Shown: positions 1 to 7,468 of the stretch, piece after piece
Layout of the letters: every line of letters starts with the position of its first letter
Numbering within the stretch: position 1 is the stretch's first letter
NCBI GenBank assembly: GCA_003644825.1
Contig: QNDJ01000062.1
Location: 1-7,577 of the forward strand
DNA: 7,577 bases
Reading direction: 5' to 3'
From: B21-G16 sp003644825 [NCBI: Candidatus Zhuqueibacterota bacterium]
Lineage (GTDB): Bacteria; SM23-31; B21-G16
Notes under the pieces: model-generated
Database searches by the model: none
What the model saw: the letters and a program-made list of their open reading frames with translations, nothing else
What the model was told of the DNA's origin: nothing
Position numbers and translations under genes: made by a program

Positions 1-102
1 ATTTCAAAACAAGAAATAATGAAATTCGTAAAGCAATTTCCTCAAGAAGAAGCTGAAATAGATGGAGAAGTAGAACTATGGAGAGAGGATGAAGATAGAT
101 AA
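1..102 (+). CDS. C-terminal end of an unidentified upstream gene (partial)
   Basis: Frame 1 is open from the first base to a TAA at 100-102, giving 33 residues that begin ISKQEIMKFV and end in a strongly acidic tail (ELWREDEDR). The start lies outside the window. Nothing in this tail identifies a family. The stop lies inside the first codons of the next gene (14-base overlap in a different frame), which indicates co-transcription with the PglZ gene. Loci combining PglZ and a DUF1156 methylase usually also encode a large ATPase (BrxC- or DUF499-like), and this could be its C-terminus, but that is inference from context, not something visible in the residues. Confidence 0.6.
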   Translation: MSKQEIMKFVKQFPQEEAEIDGEVELWREDEDR

Positions 103-994
103 TGATTTTATAGAATCACTAATAATATGTGATGATCCAGTTCCTTATATCTGGAAGAGCCTGCTTAATATCTGGTTTAATTATACAGATAGCAATCTGA
201 AAGAGTATTATTATCAAGGAGAAGGAGATGCATTTTTATTTGAAGATTTCCTTTTAAAAACCTATAATGAATTTTTTACAAAAATACTTCCCAGAAAATG
301 CTTGAATGGGCCTTCACCTTTTCAGAATGCTACCGAAGGAGTTTGTTTTATAGTAATGGATGGAATGAGTATTCGTGAAGGAGTTTTATTATTTAAGACT
401 TTACAGAAACAAGGGTTTAATCCAAAAATAAATTATTATACATCCAGTATTCCATCAGATACTTTAAGCTTTAGAGAAAAAATTAAAACTGATTTGTATA
501 AGCATTGTAAATTCGTGGAGGTAAATAATCCTGAAAAGATAAGAATTTCCGATAAAGAATGCTATATCTGGTCTTATTTTCCGGATATTCTGTTAGACAA
601 AATTCAGGTTGGACATACAGTAATATCGGACCTGGAAAATATGTATAAAACTGTAGAAAAGATTATTTTTGAATTATTAGGAAAGATTAATTCAAAAAAG
701 ATTATAATTCTATCTGATCATGGTTATATACGTTCAGAACCCGGTTTTTCCTTTTCAGTTCCAGATACCAGAAAGAGAGAATTAAGAGAATTATTTGGAA
801 GTTCACGTTATATTTCAATGGATAAAGCTGACCTCACAGATCTGGTTCAGGAAGGATTAATTTTAGATTTTTCAGGATTTTATCTTGTTAAATCCCGATA
901 TACCTGGCCTATACCGGGAAAGTATAACATTTATCTTCACGGTGGCGTAAGTCTTATGGAATGTTTTGTACCAGTAATTGAAGTTTTAAAATAA
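89..994 (+). CDS. pglZ: Compact PglZ-domain protein (alkaline phosphatase superfamily)
   Basis: This is a 301-residue protein. Three landmarks of the PglZ/alkaline phosphatase fold are visible in order: a hydrophobic strand ending in an acidic turn, VCFIVMDGMS (D91), the likely metal or nucleophile site; SDHG at 209-212 (D210, H211), a metal-binding motif; and LHGGVSLMECFVPVIEV from residue 283 (H284), the typical PglZ C-terminal HGG...E..VPV signature. D166 or D181 could supply a further ligand. PglZ proteins are essential in BREX/Pgl phage-defence systems, although their exact substrate is not settled. Known BREX PglZ proteins are usually well over 600 residues, so this is close to a minimal domain with only about 80 residues in front. 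ATG 89 is the only usable start: an in-frame TAG lies at 71-73 and no other start codon follows it before 89. A purine-rich GAGAGAGG abuts the ATG with no spacer, so translation probably depends on coupling to the overlapping upstream gene. The TAA stop shares one base with the next ATG. The family call is good; catalytic activity is not proven. Confidence 0.8.
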   Translation: MKIDNDFIESLIICDDPVPYIWKSLLNIWFNYTDSNLKEYYYQGEGDAFLFEDFLLKTYNEFFTKILPRKCLNGPSPFQNATEGVCFIVMDGMSIREGVLLFKTLQKQGFNPKINYYTSSIPSDTLSFREKIKTDLYKHCKFVEVNNPEKIRISDKECYIWSYFPDILLDKIQVGHTVISDLENMYKTVEKIIFELLGKINSKKIIILSDHGYIRSEPGFSFSVPDTRKRELRELFGSSRYISMDKADLTDLVQEGLILDFSGFYLVKSRYTWPIPGKYNIYLHGGVSLMECFVPVIEVLK

Positions 995-1401
995 TGAGCA
1001 ATGTGAATATAAGAGACCCTTTATATGGATTCATTATATTAAACGATATAGAATCGAAAATTTTGGATTCATATCCTTTTCAAAGGCTTAGGTTTATCCA
1101 TCAATTAGGAACAACATCTTTTGTTTATCCTACAGGTTGCCATACCCGTTTTGAACATTCTCTGGGTGTTTTAAGATTGAGTACACGGTTGATTAAATGC
1201 CTGAAAGAACAGGAATTAACCATAAAAGAGATGGATGAAAAAGTTTTTAGACTATCAGCTATGCTTCATGATATTGGTCATGCTCCGTTTTCTCATATTG
1301 GGGAAGATATGATGTTATTTTCAAAGGGATTTGATCATGAAAAAATGACAATTAAAATTATAGAAGAGTCAGAAATCGGGGAAATATTAAAAAAAATTTA
1401 G
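994..1401 (+). CDS. HD-superfamily phosphohydrolase (SAMHD1/dGTPase-like), 5' part before a frame change
   Basis: The 135-residue N-terminal part of an HD-domain phosphohydrolase (COG1078 type, related to dNTP triphosphohydrolases). It opens with IRDPLYGFI, then FQRLRFIHQLG, the RFEHS motif (R52, H55) and MLHDIGHAPFSH (H92, D93). In SAMHD1 the matching residues are R164, H167, H206 and D207, three of them metal ligands. The fourth ligand, a downstream Asp, is encoded in the next frame (see 1464-2216). The frame ends at TAG 1399-1401, directly after a run of eight A. Alone this product would lack the last metal ligand and about two thirds of the protein, so it is probably inactive unless the ribosome or RNA polymerase shifts frame. 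The ATG overlaps the preceding stop by one base (TAATG) and no clear Shine-Dalgarno precedes it, which suggests reinitiation after the PglZ gene. Confidence 0.8.
   Translation: MSNVNIRDPLYGFIILNDIESKILDSYPFQRLRFIHQLGTTSFVYPTGCHTRFEHSLGVLRLSTRLIKCLKEQELTIKEMDEKVFRLSAMLHDIGHAPFSHIGEDMMLFSKGFDHEKMTIKIIEESEIGEILKKI
1389..1396 (+). other. A8 tract with A_AAA_AAA slippery heptamer; frame change inside the HD gene
   Basis: In the upstream frame the codons are TTA AAA AAA ATT TAG, so bases 1389-1395 form an exact A_AAA_AAA heptamer, the type used for -1 ribosomal frameshifting. A -1 slip here, or one extra A in the transcript, gives TTA AAA AAA AAT TTA GAT, which runs into the 3' frame and yields a continuous 407-residue HD protein. 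A GGGGA lies 6 bases upstream (1378-1382) and could act like the internal Shine-Dalgarno stimulator of dnaX. A 5-bp hairpin (1438-1442 with 1451-1455) starts about 40 bases downstream, too far for a standard stimulator. A loss of one A by mutation, or a homopolymer sequencing error, would look the same. Confidence 0.6.
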
Positions 1402-1463
1402 ATAATGAAAGTATAGATAGAATAAAGTTTATATCTACAGGTAAAGGTAAACCTGCATGTGAA

Positions 1464-2216
1464 TTGGATTCTATATTTACAACTTTATTAACTGGTGAAG
1501 CAGGAATAGATAGAATGGATTATCTCTTAAGGGATTCCTATTTTCTCGGTGTTGCGTATGGAAAATTCGATTTAGAAAGGCTTTTTGAAACTATATTGTA
1601 TAGGAAAAATGGTGAACCTCCGATAATGTGGGAAGAAGGCGGACAGCATGCTCTGGAACAGTTTATTCTTGCTAGATATTTTATGTTCTTGGAAGTATAT
1701 TTCCATAAAACACGAAGGATTCTGGATTACCATCTATCACAGGTAATAAAGGAATATATTAAAAATACCAAGAAAGAAGAATTTTATCCAACAGATATAG
1801 ATGAATATATTAAATTAAATGATATTGTGATATTTAATTGGATATTAGAAAATAAAGAAAATAGATGTGCTAAAAGAATAATAAGTAGAGAATTTTTTAG
1901 AAAAATAGAAAAAGAAAGTAGAGAACATCCTACTGATGAAGAAATATTTTTATGGGATGAGATAGAAAAGAAAATGAAAGATAACTTTAATGATAATGAT
2001 TACTACTTAGATAAGGCTGAAAAGTCTCCATTAAAATTTGAAAAAACTGATATTTCTATTTTGTTAAATAATAAGTCTGTGCAATTGCCTAAAAGGTCTG
2101 CACTGGTTAACTCTTTGAAGCCTATAAAAAAAAGAAGGATTTATGCTGATAAAGATAAAATAAGGGAAATTGAAGAATTTGTTAAAAATTTTTTTAAAAA
2201 TAAGAACGGAGGATAA
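1464..2216 (+). CDS. HD-superfamily phosphohydrolase, 3' part after the frame change
   Basis: This frame carries the rest of the HD phosphohydrolase. It is open upstream of 1464 back through the A8 tract, and the stretch 1395-1463 encodes NLDNESIDRI and onward, which fits the family, so the TTG at 1464 is only the first nominal start codon and is not preceded by a convincing ribosome-binding site. LTGEAGIDRMDYLLRDS supplies the missing ligand: D173, Y177 and D181 of the fused protein correspond to SAMHD1 D311, Y315 and D319. The helical part that follows (QFILARYFMFLEVYFHKTRR) is typical of COG1078 proteins. Past residue ~250 of the fusion the sequence is Lys/Glu/Asn-rich and unusually AT-rich. 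The joined length of 407 residues is normal for the family, and motifs on both sides of the junction are intact, which argues for a functional gene (frameshifted product or sequencing error) or a very recent inactivation. Likely role: hydrolysis of (d)NTPs, perhaps to starve or signal during infection; the substrate is not shown by sequence. Confidence 0.72.
   Translation: MDSIFTTLLTGEAGIDRMDYLLRDSYFLGVAYGKFDLERLFETILYRKNGEPPIMWEEGGQHALEQFILARYFMFLEVYFHKTRRILDYHLSQVIKEYIKNTKKEEFYPTDIDEYIKLNDIVIFNWILENKENRCAKRIISREFFRKIEKESREHPTDEEIFLWDEIEKKMKDNFNDNDYYLDKAEKSPLKFEKTDISILLNNKSVQLPKRSALVNSLKPIKKRRIYADKDKIREIEEFVKNFFKNKNGG
2208..2212 (+). promoter_or_regulatory. Strong Shine-Dalgarno (GGAGG) for the YwgA-like gene
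   Basis: GGAGG lies 6 bases before ATG 2219 and overlaps the last codons of the HD gene. It is the best ribosome-binding site in the window; most other junctions rely on overlap. The YwgA-like protein can therefore be made at a good level even when ribosomes terminate early at 1401 in the HD gene. Confidence 0.6.
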
Positions 2217-2218
2217 TT

Positions 2219-2728
2219 ATGCTAAAAAGGCTAGATGCGATATTGAAGCTTATTAAAAAGATAGGAGATTCTGTTGGTAAAACATTTATTCAAAAAGGAA
2301 TCTACATTTTACAGGAAGGGTTAAAAGAAGATTTGGGGTATAGTTTCAAACTATATATTTATGGTCCATATTCTAATGACCTTGCCAGTGATATAGATAC
2401 ATTACAAGATATAGGATTTATAAAAGTTGATTATGATCCAGGTGGATATGGTTACCTTATCGGGATAACACAAAAAGGAAGAAAATTCTTGAATGATAAA
2501 TCAATAGAAAATTCGGTACCAATGGAAAAAATAGATAAAATAATTTCTTTATTAGAAGGTGGAGGTGTTAAGAAAATGGAATTATTGGGAACATTACTTT
2601 ACTTTTCTAAACTTTCTAATAAAGACAAAGAGATAAAAGAATTGGTTAACTATGTAAAACCTCATTTCTCAGAAAAAGATATAGAAAGTGGTTTAGATTT
2701 ACTTAAAAAGGAAGAAATAGTAAAATGA
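2219..2728 (+). CDS. YwgA-like family protein, probable partner of the HD phosphohydrolase
   Basis: This 169-residue soluble protein has an N-terminal helical segment, then FIQKGIYILQEGL (23-35), SFKLYIYGPYSNDLASDI (42-59, with the GPYS turn at 49-52) and a winged-helix-like strand pair near 66-86 ending in TQKGRKFL. This pattern (QK..Y..Q, F.....GPYS..L..D...L...G.I) is what I associate with the uncharacterised YwgA family, and it has the general look of Panacea/DUF4065-type domains. As I recall, Bacillus subtilis has ywfO (HD phosphohydrolase) and ywgA close together, so the HD-YwgA pairing seen here is likely a conserved module. Its biochemical role is unknown; regulation or binding of the HD enzyme is an inference. 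It starts 3 bases after the HD stop with a GGAGG in front, and its TGA overlaps the methylase ATG (ATGA). Confidence 0.6.
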   Translation: MLKRLDAILKLIKKIGDSVGKTFIQKGIYILQEGLKEDLGYSFKLYIYGPYSNDLASDIDTLQDIGFIKVDYDPGGYGYLIGITQKGRKFLNDKSIENSVPMEKIDKIISLLEGGGVKKMELLGTLLYFSKLSNKDKEIKELVNYVKPHFSEKDIESGLDLLKKEEIVK

Positions 2729-5496
2729 AGCCAAAACCCATTGAAATAGACTTTCCTATTGAGCAGGTAAATGAGATTGCTGAACGTGAAGCTCATGCTA
2801 AAGAGAAATACAGGCCTATTTATTTTATACATAAATGGTGGGCAAGAAGGCTTGGTAGTGTGTTCAGAACTATTATTCTTTACAGCCTGCTGGATGAAAA
2901 TGCGAAAGTCCTTGAAGATAATGGTAGGTGGCGTCCTGTAACAAAAGAAGAACTGGAAACCCCCTGGCTCTTGTATTTAAAGGATGTTGATTTGGGCGGT
3001 AAAATTGTTCTAGACCCGATGATGGGTGGCGGCACAACCGTTATAGAAGCATTAAGGCTTGGATGTAAAGTTGTTGCTCAGGACTTAAACCCTGTAGCCT
3101 GGTTCCTTGTTAAAAAAATGGTTGAGCCTGTGGATATTGATTTACTTAAAGAAGGATTCAAAAAGTTAGAGATTCAAGTGGCAGATGAGATAAAACAGTA
3201 TTACCGAACAATTTGTCCTGTTTGCTTGAAAAAATACTGTAAATATAGTAAAGAAATTCCAGAGTTTGTTATAAAAGAAGTTTCTAAGAAACTGAGAGAA
3301 GTAGAAAAGCCTGAAGAACTTTACGAAAAATATTATTTTGAAGATACTAAAAATTATAAGGTTAATCCTGGACAGATAAGTATTTTAAAGAAAGTAAATA
3401 TCTTTGCTGATACGATGTATTACTTCTGGATTAAAGAGGTTACCTGTTTGAATTGTGGTGTAAAGGTTCCACTTTTTAGAGGATATATGCTTGCCAGGAA
3501 AAGAGATAAAAGTGGTTATTATGTAATTTGCCCTTTTTGTGGAAATCTTTTTGATGTTAAGGATTACAGGAAAGATACTGAATGCCCGAAATGTGATAGG
3601 CATTTTAACCCGGATAAAGATGGTAACGTGGAAGGAAAATATTACACCTGCCCTGAGTGCGGCCAGAAAAGTGTAATAATAGAGGCGATTCAGAGAAAAG
3701 GGAAACCTGCTGAAAGGCTTTATGCTGTGGAATACTACTGCCCTTCCTGTAATGAGAAAGGATATAAACAGGTAGATGAATTTGACCGGGCTCTGTTTGA
3801 AAAGGCAAGAAGTGAATACAAAAAAGTTGAACCCGAATGGATGGGTAAGTATGTGCCCGATACAAAAATACCTAAAGGACAGGAAACATACCCAAGACTC
3901 ATTAAGAATCACGGCTATAAATACTGGAAGGATATGTTTAATGAACGACAGCTTCTTTCTCTTGGAAAGCTTTTAAAAGCGATACTGGAAATAGATGTGG
4001 ATGAAAATGTGAGAGAGTTGTTGGTGATTACATTTTCTGATACCTTGAATTATCAGAATATATTGTGTGAATATAATCGAGTTGCAAATAAGTTAAAGGA
4101 ATTATTTAGTAAACATTCATTTCATACTTTAGTAAATCCTGTTGAAAATAATGTATGGAGTACAAAATACGGACTTGGAATATTTGATCATATAATAGAA
4201 AAAATTATAAAAGGCAAAATTTATAATAAAACTACTTTTGAAAAATATATAAAATTTAACAAGACATTTGAAAAAACATCTAAAGTAAAAATTAAATTTG
4301 AAGTTGCTAACTCTTTTAATAAAAATGGAAAAATAAAGCTTCACTGTGGTGATTCTTCATATATCTATATTCCAGATAACTCAGTTTATGCAGTAATAAC
4401 AGATCCGCCTTATTATGGAAATGTTGTGTATTCAGAACTCTCTGAGTTTTATTATTCCTGGCTGAGATTGGCACTGAAGAACAGGTATGAATATTTCCAG
4501 AGTGACCATATACCAAATTCAGCAGAGGTAATAGTTAATAAAGTTCAGGGAAAAGAAGAAAAAGATTTTATTGAGGGTTTAACTGCTATTTTTAAAGAAG
4601 CAGGTAAAAAATTAAAAGATGATGGTATAATGACCTTTACCTTTCACCATCAGGAAGAAAAAGCATGGGGTGCAGTTTTACAGTCTGTCCTTAATGCTGG
4701 ATTTTATATTGCTTCTATATATCCTGTTCAGTCAGAAAAAAGCACAAGTACACACATTTTCCAGAAAGCCAATGTTCGTTTTGATATGGTTGTGGTATGC
4801 CGAAAAAGGGAGAATGAACCTGAGAAAAAACACTGGTCAATCCTTGAAGATGAAATCTATTTTAAAGTAGAGGATGAATTGAAGAGAATGGAAAAACACA
4901 AGAAAAATCTGTCATCAGGAGATGTTTTTGTGGTTACCATTGGCAAATGCCTTGAGGTTTATTCCAAACATTATCCTGAAGTTTATAAAGAAGAAAACAG
5001 AGTTAGCATAGAAGAAGCCCTTTCTTCTATAAGGGAGATTGTGGATTCTCAGCTTATGCATACAAGGTTTAATCAGGTTGCATTGGAAACAGATACCCTG
5101 ACCGCTATTTATATTTTTTATTTAGCAGGTAAAACAAGCATCTCTTATGAATCCCTTAATAAAGCTTTAAGGATGAGAAACCTTGGAGTAAAAGCAGTAA
5201 TTGATGCTGGACTTGTGGAAAGAGAAGGAAGTCAATTACTTATTTTGACTCCTTTGGAACGAAAAGAAATTTTGGATACCAAGAAGAAAGAAAGTTTTTC
5301 TGTTATTGATAGAGTGCATTATCTTTACTGGCTTTATAATAATGATAAGTTTTTCTCCTTTGAAAATAACTTATTAGAAGATGAAAAAGTGTTGTGGAAT
5401 AATGATAGTGTATTTAAAGCACTGGATTACCTGAAAGAAATTGAAAATGGTAAAATCTATGAAGAAATAATGAAACTTATAAAGAGCAGGTGGTAG
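2725..5496 (+). CDS. DUF1156-type adenine-specific DNA methyltransferase with zinc-ribbon insert
   Basis: The 923-residue protein starts with the DUF1156 signature (FPIEQVNEIAEREA, then FIHKWWARR at 35-42). SAM-binding motif I follows: KIVLDPMMGGGTT (D97-T105) and AQDLNPVAW (118-126). The catalytic motif IV is TDPPYYGN at 559-566, the N6-adenine/N4-cytosine amino-methyltransferase type. Between them lies a large insert with six CxxC pairs: C164/C167, C241/C244, C269/C272, C287/C290, C309/C312 and C339/C342, enough for about three zinc ribbons, followed by a helical part with SDTLNYQN and HSFHTLVNPVENNVW. The core closes near FDMVVVCRKR (686-695). Residues ~700-923 are largely helical, with a possible winged helix around 803-845. 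Likely role: N6-adenine methylation of host DNA to mark self in a defence system. The ATG overlaps the YwgA stop (ATGA), with AAGGAAG about 10 bases upstream. No truncation is seen. Amino group target (A rather than C) is inferred from the family. Confidence 0.88.
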   Translation: MKPKPIEIDFPIEQVNEIAEREAHAKEKYRPIYFIHKWWARRLGSVFRTIILYSLLDENAKVLEDNGRWRPVTKEELETPWLLYLKDVDLGGKIVLDPMMGGGTTVIEALRLGCKVVAQDLNPVAWFLVKKMVEPVDIDLLKEGFKKLEIQVADEIKQYYRTICPVCLKKYCKYSKEIPEFVIKEVSKKLREVEKPEELYEKYYFEDTKNYKVNPGQISILKKVNIFADTMYYFWIKEVTCLNCGVKVPLFRGYMLARKRDKSGYYVICPFCGNLFDVKDYRKDTECPKCDRHFNPDKDGNVEGKYYTCPECGQKSVIIEAIQRKGKPAERLYAVEYYCPSCNEKGYKQVDEFDRALFEKARSEYKKVEPEWMGKYVPDTKIPKGQETYPRLIKNHGYKYWKDMFNERQLLSLGKLLKAILEIDVDENVRELLVITFSDTLNYQNILCEYNRVANKLKELFSKHSFHTLVNPVENNVWSTKYGLGIFDHIIEKIIKGKIYNKTTFEKYIKFNKTFEKTSKVKIKFEVANSFNKNGKIKLHCGDSSYIYIPDNSVYAVITDPPYYGNVVYSELSEFYYSWLRLALKNRYEYFQSDHIPNSAEVIVNKVQGKEEKDFIEGLTAIFKEAGKKLKDDGIMTFTFHHQEEKAWGAVLQSVLNAGFYIASIYPVQSEKSTSTHIFQKANVRFDMVVVCRKRENEPEKKHWSILEDEIYFKVEDELKRMEKHKKNLSSGDVFVVTIGKCLEVYSKHYPEVYKEENRVSIEEALSSIREIVDSQLMHTRFNQVALETDTLTAIYIFYLAGKTSISYESLNKALRMRNLGVKAVIDAGLVEREGSQLLILTPLERKEILDTKKKESFSVIDRVHYLYWLYNNDKFFSFENNLLEDEKVLWNNDSVFKALDYLKEIENGKIYEEIMKLIKSRW
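5488..5493 (+). promoter_or_regulatory. Shine-Dalgarno (AGGTGG) that decides the start at 5499
   Basis: AGGTGG ends 5 bases before ATG 5499 and lies over the end of the methylase gene. The in-frame GTG at 5490 falls inside this element and has no site of its own, so ATG 5499 is the better start for the following gene. Confidence 0.5.
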
Positions 5497-5498
5497 TA

Positions 5499-5891
5499 AT
5501 GGATATTGGTTTCAACATTATTAGAAAGAATAACCCGGATATTTTTAAAGAAAAAATCAGCATTATAAAGTTTCTCAAGTACCTTAATGAGGGTAAAAAG
5601 TTTCCACCTGATTTTGCTGTATATGGGCTTGATAGTCTCCTTTATTATGCCAAGAATAGAGATAAGATAGCAAAGTACATAAGAGATATACTTCTTGATA
5701 GTGCTAATAATCTTGTTGCTGGTAATTATATTATTCAACTGGTCATAGAGGGTGATATAAATGTTGTGGAAAGTGATGAAAGGCCCAGAATAGTTTATAA
5801 GAATGAAGAATTTTTCCTTTATCCTGTAATAGGCAGGGTAAAACGTATAGATTTAAAACATTTCTATGCACCACTTAATCTTCAATCATGA
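5499..5891 (+). CDS. Unrecognised 130-residue protein between methylase and helicase
   Basis: I do not recognise this family. The protein is 130 residues from ATG 5499 (133 if GTG 5490 is used). It has mixed charge, no signal peptide, no membrane segment and no cysteines. The first half looks helical (IFKEKISIIKFLKYLNEGKK, then YGLDSLLYYAKNRDKIAKYI at 42-61); the second half looks more beta-like and ends with FFLYPVIGRVKRIDLKHFYAP (105-125). It begins 2 bases after the methylase stop, and its TGA overlaps the helicase ATG (ATGA) with no Shine-Dalgarno for the helicase, so helicase translation probably depends on it. That coupling suggests a stoichiometric partner or adaptor of the helicase or methylase, which is inference only. 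The length, good start context and tight packing make it a real gene. Confidence 0.75.
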   Translation: MDIGFNIIRKNNPDIFKEKISIIKFLKYLNEGKKFPPDFAVYGLDSLLYYAKNRDKIAKYIRDILLDSANNLVAGNYIIQLVIEGDINVVESDERPRIVYKNEEFFLYPVIGRVKRIDLKHFYAPLNLQS

Positions 5892-7468
5892 AAGAAAAAT
5901 GGAAGGGCTGGCATCTTCATCATCTGGCAAGAAGAGCCCGAGTTTTTGGAATAGAAGAAAGATTTATAGATGCCTTAGAAAAAGCTGGCTGGTATCTTAC
6001 TAAAGGTAAAGATATTCCTGCCGCACTTTATCCAGCTTTAGAAGAATCACTTAAAAGCCTTGCACTAATTAAAGATTTTGAGAAAACCTGTGATGACAGA
6101 AGTTGCTCTGTATGTAGGAGATTAAAGAATAATTATATTGTGTCCACTGCTTCTGTGAAACCTTATGAACTATCTATTGAGCTTTATAGATGGCAAAAAG
6201 AGGCAAAAAAAGCCTGGTGGAATAATAATGGAAGGGGAATTGTAAAAGTGGTTACAGGTGCAGGTAAAACAGTATTTGCCTTATCTTTAATTTCAGACCT
6301 TTACAGGTCTGTTGCTTATAGAGAAGGTGGTATTAAAACCATCATTATAGTACCCACTTCTGCTCTTCTTGACCAGTGGCTCATAAGTTTAATGGATAAA
6401 TTAAATATCCCAAGAAGAAAAATAGCTGTGTTTTATGGCAAAGAAAAAGAATTTATTTATGAAAAGGTATTTATACTTTATATTGTGAACACAGCAATAA
6501 AGTATATTGAGGAACACGCTCAAAATTATTTTAAAAATGATGATACTTTTTTAATAGCAGATGAATGCCATCGTTATGGGAGCAAAGAAAATTCGAAAAT
6601 CTTCAGAGTACAATTTTCTTATACTCTTGGTCTTTCTGCAACACCAAAAAGATTTAGTGATTTCGGTTTTGAGGAGAAAATTGAACCTGCCCTTGGTAAG
6701 ATTATTTTTTCTTACTCATATAAAGATGCATTAAGTGATGGAATTATTCCACCATATAAGTTGATTAGAACGAAGGTAAACTTAAGAGAAGAAGAATATT
6801 ATCAATATGAGGAATATACAGAAAAAATAAGTAAGGTAAGCAGAATTTTATTTTCAAGATACCCTGAGCTGGAGATGATAAAGCAATCCACATTCTTTAA
6901 GAAATTAGGTTCTTTATATGATAAAACAGAGGATGACATAATTGCAAGATATACATCTCTGTTGAACGCCCGAAAAGGAATAATTCATGCTTCAAAATCC
7001 AAGCTTGAAGCTTTGAAATGGCTTATATCTAATGAAAATCTAAAAAATGAGAAAGTATTAATCTTTCATGAGAGAATTGAAATAGCAGAAAAGATTTTTG
7101 AATATCTGGAGAAAAAGGGGTTAAAAGTTGGAATTTATCATACACATTTATCTTTTAACAAAAGGCTTAAAAATATTTCTAACTACAGAGATGGCTGTAT
7201 TAATGTTCTTATTTCATGTAGAGCCCTCGATGAAGGTTTTGATGTACCAGAGTCAAACATCGGTATTATAGTTGCCGGAACAAGCAGCGTAAGGCAGTGG
7301 ATTCAGAGAATGGGAAGAATTTTAAGAAGAATGCCGGGTAAAAAGTTTTCAAAAATTTATGTAGTATTTGTGGACCTTGTGGAAAAAGATGTATTTAAAG
7401 AAAAAGAACTTGCTGAATTTGAAAGAGAAGCTTATAGTGTTGAGTCTATAAACTTAACTTTTAAATAA
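5888..7468 (+). CDS. XPB/Rad25-like superfamily 2 DNA helicase/translocase (DECH box)
   Basis: The 526-residue protein has a full set of SF2 motifs: a Q-like element LYRWQKEA (99-106), Walker A TGAGKT (123-128), motif Ia IIVPTSALLDQW (153-164), Walker B ADECH (224-228), SAT motif LSATPKR (249-255), motif V ISCRALDEGFDVP (442-454) and motif VI QWIQRMGRILRR (470-481). The second RecA domain starts near EKVLIFHER (388-396). This order and the DECH box point to the XPB/UvsW-like group of ATP-dependent duplex translocases. The first ~95 residues form an unassigned N-terminal domain with WHLHHLARRAR (8-18) and a cysteine cluster C68, C73, C76. A helical stretch at ~300-375 separates the two motor domains. 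No nuclease domain is fused. In this operon it probably acts as the motor that tracks along or remodels invading DNA, as helicases do in BREX- and DISARM-like systems. ATG 5888 overlaps the preceding stop (ATGA) and has no ribosome-binding site, so it is likely coupled. Confidence 0.87.
   Translation: MKEKWKGWHLHHLARRARVFGIEERFIDALEKAGWYLTKGKDIPAALYPALEESLKSLALIKDFEKTCDDRSCSVCRRLKNNYIVSTASVKPYELSIELYRWQKEAKKAWWNNNGRGIVKVVTGAGKTVFALSLISDLYRSVAYREGGIKTIIIVPTSALLDQWLISLMDKLNIPRRKIAVFYGKEKEFIYEKVFILYIVNTAIKYIEEHAQNYFKNDDTFLIADECHRYGSKENSKIFRVQFSYTLGLSATPKRFSDFGFEEKIEPALGKIIFSYSYKDALSDGIIPPYKLIRTKVNLREEEYYQYEEYTEKISKVSRILFSRYPELEMIKQSTFFKKLGSLYDKTEDDIIARYTSLLNARKGIIHASKSKLEALKWLISNENLKNEKVLIFHERIEIAEKIFEYLEKKGLKVGIYHTHLSFNKRLKNISNYRDGCINVLISCRALDEGFDVPESNIGIIVAGTSSVRQWIQRMGRILRRMPGKKFSKIYVVFVDLVEKDVFKEKELAEFEREAYSVESINLTFK

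What the first reader, a model, noticed from the sequence alone, without database searches (positions are those of the whole stretch)
1..7468. BREX/DISARM-like operon with an unfamiliar gene set: PglZ, HD + YwgA, DUF1156 methylase, unknown 130-residue protein, XPB-like helicase
All genes are on one strand with overlaps of 1-14 bases or 2-base gaps. PglZ, a DNA methylase and a helicase together are the core parts of known phage-defence systems, but here the methylase is DUF1156 rather than PglX, PglZ is minimal, and an HD/YwgA pair lies within the operon. I know of no BREX or DISARM type with exactly this composition. Families are read from sequence motifs; the defence role is inference from family knowledge.
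Basis: partly seen in the sequence, partly recalled or inferred. Interest (0 to 1): 0.75.

Follow-up and report, generated by a model that had tools for sequence, protein, structure and literature searches.

The report
BREX-related operon variant with accessory slot
This is most of a bacterial anti-virus operon of a recently described kind (Type-3 "BREX-related"), but with a different DNA motor and with extra genes in a slot where its relatives carry toxin-antitoxin, Gabija or CRISPR parts.

Summary
The genes are real and tightly packed. Bases 1-102 encode the last 33 residues of a DUF499 ATPase, so the operon reads DUF499 - standalone PglZ - [HD, YwgA-like] - DUF1156 methyltransferase - X (~130 aa) - XPB/PbeA-type helicase. 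The HD frame is broken near 1390.

This core is the plan of the Type-3 BREX-related (BR) system published in 2026 (PMC12839542), so it is not an unknown type. Two things differ. (1) The helicase is not the ~940-aa SNF2/BrxHII type but a 526-aa PbeA/XPB-type enzyme without nuclease motifs, conserved beside X in five relatives' genomes. (2) HD-YwgA sits in a recurrent insertion slot: the PglZ-MTase junction carries extra genes in 19 of 61 dereplicated loci, the DUF499-PglZ junction in 1 of 66. In 16 of the 19 the cargo has toxin-antitoxin or defence families (MNT-HEPN, PIN, MazF, Fic, Schlafen, Gabija). In the nearest relative CRISPR Cmr genes adjoin both sides of the slot, on two contigs.

Best reading: modification-dependent phage defence, a helicase-swapped variant of Type-3 BR with a docked dNTPase-like module. 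Function is inferred throughout.

The parts
1..102 (+). C-terminal 33 residues and stop of a DUF499 (BrxC-like) ATPase gene cut by the contig end
   Evidence: phmmer 4e-16 to 2e-6 against C-termini of DUF499 proteins of ten relatives
89..994 (+). standalone PglZ, 301 aa, putative nuclease
   Evidence: Pfam PglZ 7e-8; 28 positions invariant in 7 aligned relatives, among them D91, S94, D210, H211, H284; overlaps DUF499 by 14 bases
994..2216 (+). HD (SAMHD1-like) phosphohydrolase gene, frame broken near 1390 (ORFs 994-1401 and 1464-2216): accessory cargo
   Evidence: HD 3e-11 and HD_assoc_2 8e-12; 2hek 1e-29 and 2e-31 for the two halves; unbroken relative in L022
2219..2728 (+). YwgA/DarG-C-like protein, 169 aa: accessory cargo paired with HD
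   Evidence: PADLOC DarG 8e-11 over DarG 167-319, NCBIfam DarG 8e-8, under cut-off; pair also in a Priestia plasmid and in G016 (L108)
2725..5496 (+). DUF1156 DNA methyltransferase, 923 aa
   Evidence: motif-I-like stretch at residue 97, DPPY at 560, six CxxC between 164 and 342
5499..5891 (+). X, about 130 aa, degenerate P-loop-like (iSTAND-like) protein (ORF listed from 5490; relatives suggest the start at 5499)
   Evidence: profile family of 44 ORFs; model pLDDT 90; P-loop folds at Z up to 4.5 only; no Walker A in 0 of 44 exceptions, i.e. none has it
5888..7468 (+). SF2 helicase, PbeA/XPB type, 526 aa, no nuclease motif found
   Evidence: PADLOC PbeA 3e-78 from profile position 240 on; XPB structures 2e-29; relatives at 60-78%; motif scan

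Best explanation
The window holds most of a phage-defence operon on the Type-3 BREX-related plan: DUF499 ATPase - PglZ - DUF1156 methyltransferase - iSTAND-like X - helicase, in a sub-lineage whose helicase is a nuclease-less PbeA/XPB-type SF2 enzyme instead of the SNF2/BrxHII type. Shown here: gene content and order, conservation in relatives, helicase type, and a recurrent cargo slot between the pglZ and MTase genes in which HD-YwgA lies. Inferred: the MTase marks self DNA; DUF499 with PglZ and X senses unmarked DNA; the helicase translocates and PglZ nicks, which stops replication of the invader. Inferred, weaker: HD-YwgA is a back-up module in which the SAMHD1-like HD enzyme depletes dNTPs and the DarG-like YwgA protein restrains it. 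In this contig the HD frame is broken, so that module may be dead here, or the break is an assembly error.
For: DUF499 tail at the contig edge. Same core order in haloarchaeal plasmids and Aminobacter and in relatives from many phyla. X within 2.5 kb after the MTase in 55 of 59 loci, 57 with two overlapping cases. Whole operon on one contig with this helicase in L115; PglZ C-terminus to helicase in L117. The six PglZ rows labelled with this helicase lie on one side of a branch, 100/99. Plan matches Type-3 BR. PglZ-MTase inserts 19 of 61 against 1 of 66 for DUF499-PglZ, P 2.4e-6. Type I PglZ is a metal-dependent nuclease (PMC11974810, passages).
Against: The helicase fails the published Type-3 BR description (BrxHII arrangement). 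DUF499 itself is not in the window. Fold support for X as iSTAND is weak (no significant Foldseek hit; Z at most 4.5). Four of the six labelled tree rows have PglZ and helicase on different contigs of one MAG. HD is frame-broken. YwgA was found in 1 of 11 nearest genomes, outside the BR locus. No function was tested.
Confidence: 0.65

Rival explanations
1. It is a plain Type-3 BR system already inside the published survey; the helicase is ordinary variation and nothing is new.
For: Core matches section 33 of PMC12839542, which counts 569 taxa including 134 archaea; haloarchaeal relatives without SNF2 may be among them. Supplements could not be read.
Against: The main text gives the Type-3 BR helicase as identical in domain arrangement to BrxHII, ~940 residues; this one is 526 aa, PbeA 3e-78 against 5e-9 for the best BrxHI/BrxHII model. 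'xpb' and 'pbea' do not occur in the main text.
Confidence: 0.3
2. HD-YwgA and the other inserts are passengers: the PglZ-MTase junction merely tolerates insertions, and HD-YwgA is a housekeeping pair with no defence role.
For: HD_assoc_2 is found in 10 of 14 control genomes; the pair stands alone in Priestia and G016; X-helicase junctions also take inserts (6 of 36; difference from PglZ-MTase not significant, P 0.15); HD is broken here.
Against: 16 of 19 cargoes have toxin-antitoxin or defence families; cargo genes are on the operon strand and often overlap the core genes by a few bases; an HD gene 80% identical lies in the slot of L022.
Confidence: 0.35
3. A wholly new BREX- or DISARM-like type.
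For: Helicase lineage and cargo not described in the sections read.
Against: The other core parts and their order match Type-3 BR; no Drm component among the shown window hits.
Confidence: 0.08
4. A decaying operon: the broken HD frame marks the start of loss.
For: HD frame change near 1390; relatives include split or rearranged copies (L022, L024, L116).
Against: All core genes in the window are open and keep their motifs; HD is cargo; the MAG is 83.6% complete in 493 contigs, so an assembly error in an A-run is possible.
Confidence: 0.12

Closest known systems
Type-3 BREX-related (BR) system (PMC12839542, 2026)
   Same: DUF499 ATPase, standalone PglZ, DUF1156 MTase, small fast-evolving protein after the MTase, helicase without nuclease
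   Different: helicase is PbeA/XPB type, not BrxHII/SNF2; cargo (HD-YwgA) inside the operon, where the paper says Type-3 BR lacks auxiliary nucleases or keeps them in limited instances
Hma system / Type-1 BR
   Same: DUF1156 MTase (HmaB 7e-48) and DUF499/HmaC-type ATPase in relatives
   Different: Hma has a SNF2 helicase fused to a nuclease and no PglZ (section 29)
PbeABCD (CxC-ABC system)
   Same: helicase core (PbeA 3e-78)
   Different: PbeA carries an HKD/PLD nuclease domain in front, and partners PbeB-D; neither is seen here
BREX Types 1-6
   Same: PglZ domain, DNA MTase, BrxC-like ATPase, BrxB-like small protein (inferred)
   Different: DUF499 instead of BrxC/DUF6079, PglZ of 301 aa instead of a long multidomain protein, no BrxL/BrxA seen
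HD-YwgA gene pair (Priestia plasmid)
   Same: HD protein followed by a 169-aa YwgA-like gene
   Different: stands alone there; here inside a defence operon and frame-broken

Membership tests
Type-3 BR system | DUF499 ATPase in the core locus | tested here: met
   only its last 33 residues are in the window; whole gene next to PglZ in relatives
Type-3 BR system | standalone PglZ with conserved active-site residues | tested here: met
   301 aa, no other domain; D91, S94, D210, H211, H284 invariant in 7 sequences. That these are the metal/nucleophile positions is inferred; not aligned here to a solved PglZ
Type-3 BR system | N6-MTase with DUF1156 | tested here: met
   Pfam DUF1156 28.3 bits over cut-off 24; MTase motifs; N6 specificity not testable
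Type-3 BR system | small iSTAND protein with eroded Walker motifs | tested here: inconclusive
   X conserved after the MTase, no Walker A in any of 44, P-loop folds at Z 4.1-4.5 only, no significant Foldseek hit
Type-3 BR system | helicase with BrxHII arrangement (TUDOR, SNF2, inactive REase, alpha+beta) | tested here: not met
   526 aa; PbeA 3e-78, best BrxHI/BrxHII model 5e-9; SNF2 helicases of other loci hit BrxHI/HmaA at 1e-92 or better. Helicase model too poor to check domains
Type-3 BR system | no nuclease fused to the helicase | tested here: met
   no HKD or PD-(D/E)XK-like pattern, ends 26 residues after the helicase match; pattern test only
BREX (Types 1-6) | BrxC/PglY (DUF6079) ATPase and PglX with multidomain PglZ | tested here: not met
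   ATPase tail is DUF499; PglZ 301 aa, under all NCBIfam PglZ cut-offs; MTase nearest HmaB/DUF1156, PglXI weaker (8e-32)
DISARM | DrmB (DUF1998), DrmA, DrmC | tested here: not met
   no Drm family in the PADLOC rows shown for the 8 window ORFs (lists for MTase and helicase capped at 25); the upstream part is not in the window
PbeABCD | HKD nuclease domain on PbeA; PbeB, PbeC, PbeD partners | tested here: not met
   match starts at PbeA profile position 240; no HKD pattern; no PbeB-D in the rows shown
Hma / Type-1 BR | helicase-nuclease fusion and no PglZ | tested here: not met
   PglZ present; no nuclease pattern on the helicase
phage-defence system | protection against phage and operon-dependent DNA methylation | not testable with these tools
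   needs an experiment

The most novel reading that the evidence does not exclude
The pglZ-MTase junction of BR operons is a dedicated docking site through which a modification-sensing core (DUF499-PglZ, almost never split) commands exchangeable back-up modules: toxin-antitoxin pairs, Schlafen, Gabija, a CRISPR type III-B (Cmr) complex in the nearest relative, and HD-YwgA, which would be an unrecognised dNTP-depleting effector with an antitoxin-like regulator.
Probability: 0.3. Interest if true: 0.78.

Novelty: new variant of a known kind. Interest (0 to 1): 0.55.

Why it matters
In the text I read, Type-3 BR systems are described from sequence only. Two different helicase lineages, both without a nuclease and both next to PglZ, fit the proposal that PglZ is the nuclease of these systems and make it directly testable. 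The slot shows which parts may act as one unit (DUF499-PglZ, hardly ever split) and where back-up weapons are plugged in, possibly even a CRISPR complex, and it gives a context-based hypothesis for HD-YwgA, a pair whose role I do not know from any source.

Tried and rejected
BREX and DISARM membership: rejected on ATPase type, PglZ size and lack of Drm hits. The idea that X plus the helicase N-terminus are the missing first 240 residues of PbeA: dropped, since X also occurs in loci with an SNF2 helicase or none. Viral contigs: no relative of X or of the helicase confirmed. In the window's phylum (6 genomes held, its own included) the MTase was found in 1 of 6, its own. The AlphaFold2 model of the helicase is poor (pLDDT 59) and was not used. 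PDB by sequence: X profile, best E 0.016; PglZ nothing up to 0.01; YwgA nothing up to 0.1. The Cas10 of G007 lies on another contig (C429) followed by two ORFs that I read by eye as Csm2/Csm3-like; it is not evidence for the Cmr genes of the slot. The X profile recovered 0 of 21 of the 165-aa X ORFs of the Aminobacter type; these were counted as X by their own query and position. Repeats in L016 and L118 showed no CRISPR array.

Limits of the slot count: loci are the best 80 of 157 confirmed relatives of the window's PglZ plus plasmid loci and pieces of relatives' genomes; not a random sample. The 250-base threshold was set, before the final count but by me. ORFs are mechanical. The window, its copies and L046 (a copy of L010) were left out; PglZ at 90% identity or more dereplicated. 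PglZ-MTase against X-helicase is not significant (P 0.15). Inserts at other junctions were only sampled and also hold such genes (L075 AAA ATPase, L055 Eco57I-like MTase), so this kind of cargo is not special to the slot; what is special is the contrast with DUF499-PglZ.

Literature searches: (10 of 10 used). Only PMC12839542 held DUF499, DUF1156 and PglZ together; none held PglZ with SAMHD1. Statements on what is not in print rest on these and on the sections read, not on supplements (none could be read).
Full report
1. The observation. Apart from the break inside HD, neighbours overlap by 1-14 bases or lie 2 bases apart. The window is a whole 7577-base contig of an unnamed MAG, 83.63% complete, 493 contigs. 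Two points were not in the finding. Bases 1-102 are the end of an upstream gene: its 33 residues match the C-termini of DUF499 ATPases of ten relatives at E 4e-16 to 2e-6. And the HD gene is broken: its two ORFs are halves in different frames, the change lying in an A-rich run near 1390; a relative in L022 reads through this region in one frame (80% and 79% identity to the two halves).

2. The core. The MTase is 41.7% identical over its length to a haloarchaeal plasmid gene. Around such genes the order is DUF499 - PglZ (35% identity) - DUF1156 MTase - 132-aa protein (29%, E 2e-17 to X). In Aminobacter it is DUF499 - PglZ - MTase - 165-aa protein - SNF2-related protein. One haloarchaeal MTase relative, L008, has no such neighbours. 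A scan of genome contigs with a PglZ alignment gave 157 confirmed relatives, of which 80 were kept. Annotation with window and reference proteins showed the same order in bacteria and archaea. X follows the MTase within 2.5 kb in 55 of the 59 loci where this could be seen; two of the four misses (L068, L072) have an X ORF that overlaps the MTase end. This is the plan of the Type-3 BR system of Rakesh and Krishnan (PMC12839542; abstract, sections 27, 29, 33, 34, 35 and 40 read, passages of others): DUF499 ATPase, N6-MTase, helicase without nuclease, a standalone active PglZ across all 569 taxa and an iSTAND in 466 of them. A later paper repeats that the type 3 subsystem encodes a minimal PglZ (PMC13326643, one passage).

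3. X. No family in Pfam, PADLOC or NCBIfam. A profile from 30 members finds 44 ORFs in the loci held then, copies included, but none of the 21 Aminobacter-type ones. AlphaFold2 on an alignment of 31 gives mean pLDDT 90, an alpha/beta protein with further strands after residue 86. Foldseek gives no significant match (best E 0.2). The second look is filled mainly with RecA, Rad51 and AAA-type P-loop domains, at Z up to 4.5 over about 100 residues, a level the tool itself calls common. None of the 44 has a Walker A motif. This fits a degenerate P-loop protein such as the iSTAND but does not prove it.

4. The helicase. Its best matches are PbeA (3e-78), TIGR04095 (5e-62, under the cut-off) and archaeal XPB structures (2e-29). 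It matches PbeA only from profile position 240 on. PbeA is described as an HKD nuclease fused to an SF2 helicase (PMC10853773, passages; PLD plus helicase in PMC6459918, passages). No HKD or PD-(D/E)XK-like pattern was found in the window's helicase. The helicases of L012 and L030 are BrxHI/HmaA-like at E 1e-92 or better. So the BrxHII type that the paper gives for Type-3 BR was tested and is not met, and I call this a variant and not a plain member. The same helicase (60-78% identity) is in 5 of 14 relatives' genomes searched; a sixth match, in the Haloferax genome, is 29% identical and not counted. It is next to X in four of the five; in the fifth (L098/L117) ORFs of 79 and 352 aa lie between; in G007 it is cut by the contig end, with one in-frame stop in the matched stretch. 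PglZ and this helicase are on one contig in L115 (whole operon) and L117 (end of PglZ - MTase - X - two ORFs - helicase). In a PglZ tree of 85 rows (one a copy of the window) the 6 rows labelled with this helicase lie on one side of a branch (100/99), inside an 11-row group; four of the six carry the helicase on another contig of the same MAG. The 7 haloarchaeal rows with Dam and an AAA pair form another (100/99). Of 38 rows labelled SNF2, 37 lie in one 54-row block (99/96); the 38th, L044, has a weak SNF2 hit 3.9 kb behind X and lies in a haloarchaeal block. 34 rows bear no label, many because their contigs end early.

5. The slot. HD and YwgA-like genes lie between PglZ and MTase. Inserts of 250 bases or more (window excluded): PglZ-MTase 20 of 76 (19 of 61 dereplicated), DUF499-PglZ 1 of 81 (1 of 66), MTase-X 5 of 60 (5 of 46), X-helicase 9 of 44 (6 of 36). 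Fisher tests, dereplicated: PglZ-MTase against DUF499-PglZ P 2.4e-6, against MTase-X 0.018, against X-helicase 0.15. Cargo of the 19: MNT-HEPN in L020 and L033; MNT in L070; PIN with a ribbon-helix-helix partner in L060 and L061; PIN in L087 and L094 (with DUF3800); MazF/PemK in L069 and L090; Fic in L045; Schlafen-AlbA in L059, L064, L066, L084; an AAA ATPase with a HEC-01-like partner in L079; Ppl-like ATPase, Schlafen-AlbA, GajA and GajB in L021; DUF3800 in L028; a GMT-wHTH protein and DUF5131 in L053; no family in L058. That is 16 of 19 with toxin, antitoxin or defence families by my own sorting. Of the eleven closest relatives (L015-L025) L015 ends before the junction; six of the other ten have extra genes there (L016, L017, L020, L021, L022, L024, the last with a PglZ fragment and no core gene behind), four do not (L018, L019, L023, L025 with L117). 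L022 holds MNT-HEPN-HD and then ends; L017 holds MNT and a methylase-like ORF. In G007, the nearest relative by the MTase (79%), PglZ reads into an MNT domain, followed by HEPN and a Cmr1-like gene cut by the contig end (L016); on another contig Cmr4-, Cmr5- and Cmr3-like genes run into the MTase with a 4-base overlap, followed by X and the helicase (L118). The two contigs were not joined, and the Cas10 of a Cmr complex was not seen there. The paper notes auxiliary effectors in core loci in general, but says that Type-3 BR lacks them or keeps them in limited instances; 'cmr' does not occur in its main text.

6. HD-YwgA. The HD protein is SAMHD1-like (2hek 1e-29 and 2e-31 for the halves; SAMHD1 4e-21), and HD_assoc_2 rings in 10 of 14 control genomes. 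The YwgA-like protein resembles the C-terminal part of the antitoxin DarG; that this part binds the toxin, and the name YwgA, are recalled. The pair also stands alone in Priestia (27% identity for YwgA) and in G016 (L108). YwgA was found in 1 of the 11 closest genomes and there not in the BR locus; in L022 only HD is seen. So the pair is cargo, not core; that it is a dNTP-depleting defence module is a guess from context.

7. Mechanism. Inferred, not shown: the MTase marks self; DUF499, PglZ and X sense unmarked DNA; the helicase translocates; PglZ nicks, as the Type I enzyme does (PMC11974810, passages), where BrxB, a small AAA-like protein, binds PglZ; cargo acts when this fails. The rarely split DUF499-PglZ junction suggests that these two act as one unit; their mechanical ORFs overlap in 66 of 82 pairs (copies included, starts not curated).

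8. Verdict. The core is known in kind; the helicase lineage and the cargo slot are new as far as the searches and sections named here go. New variant of a known kind; interest 0.55.

Noticed in passing
L016:10001-12239 and L118:1-5792 (both G007): Cmr (CRISPR type III-B/C) genes adjoin PglZ-MNT-HEPN on one contig and MTase-X-helicase on another: a CRISPR effector module apparently inside a BR operon.
   Followed up: partly
L115 (G012 contig C16, 6409-24500): Whole BR operon with a complete Gabija pair (GajA, GajB), a Schlafen-AlbA gene and a Ppl-like ATPase between PglZ and MTase.
   Followed up: partly
L006, L007, L011, L013, L014, L026, L027: Haloarchaeal form: behind X a Dam-type methylase and, on the other strand, a McrB-like AAA ATPase with a 454-524-aa partner in 7 of 7 loci, no SNF2 or PbeA-type hit. 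In L007 and L011 annotated ISH3-type insertions split one gene of that pair while the core stays open.
   Followed up: partly
G000 contig C167 (L095): A second DUF1156-like MTase next to a second DUF499 gene in the window's own genome, probably another BR system.
   Followed up: no
L015-L018 against the window: PglZ 60-74% identical in MAGs labelled Pacearchaeota, Actinomycetota, Spirochaetes and Aerophobetes: wide transfer or mis-binned contigs.
   Followed up: no
window 5888-6120: The helicase N-terminus (about 95 aa) has an invariant H-rich start and three invariant cysteines (C68, C73, C76) in 5 aligned relatives, maybe a zinc site; no family hit.
   Followed up: no
L010:13591-16170 (also L046): Divergent helicase of the PADLOC PDC-S28 kind behind X in Haladaptatus.
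   Followed up: no
L117:3689-4747: 352-aa protein without any Pfam or PADLOC family between X and the helicase in S5B7_HD70.
   Followed up: no
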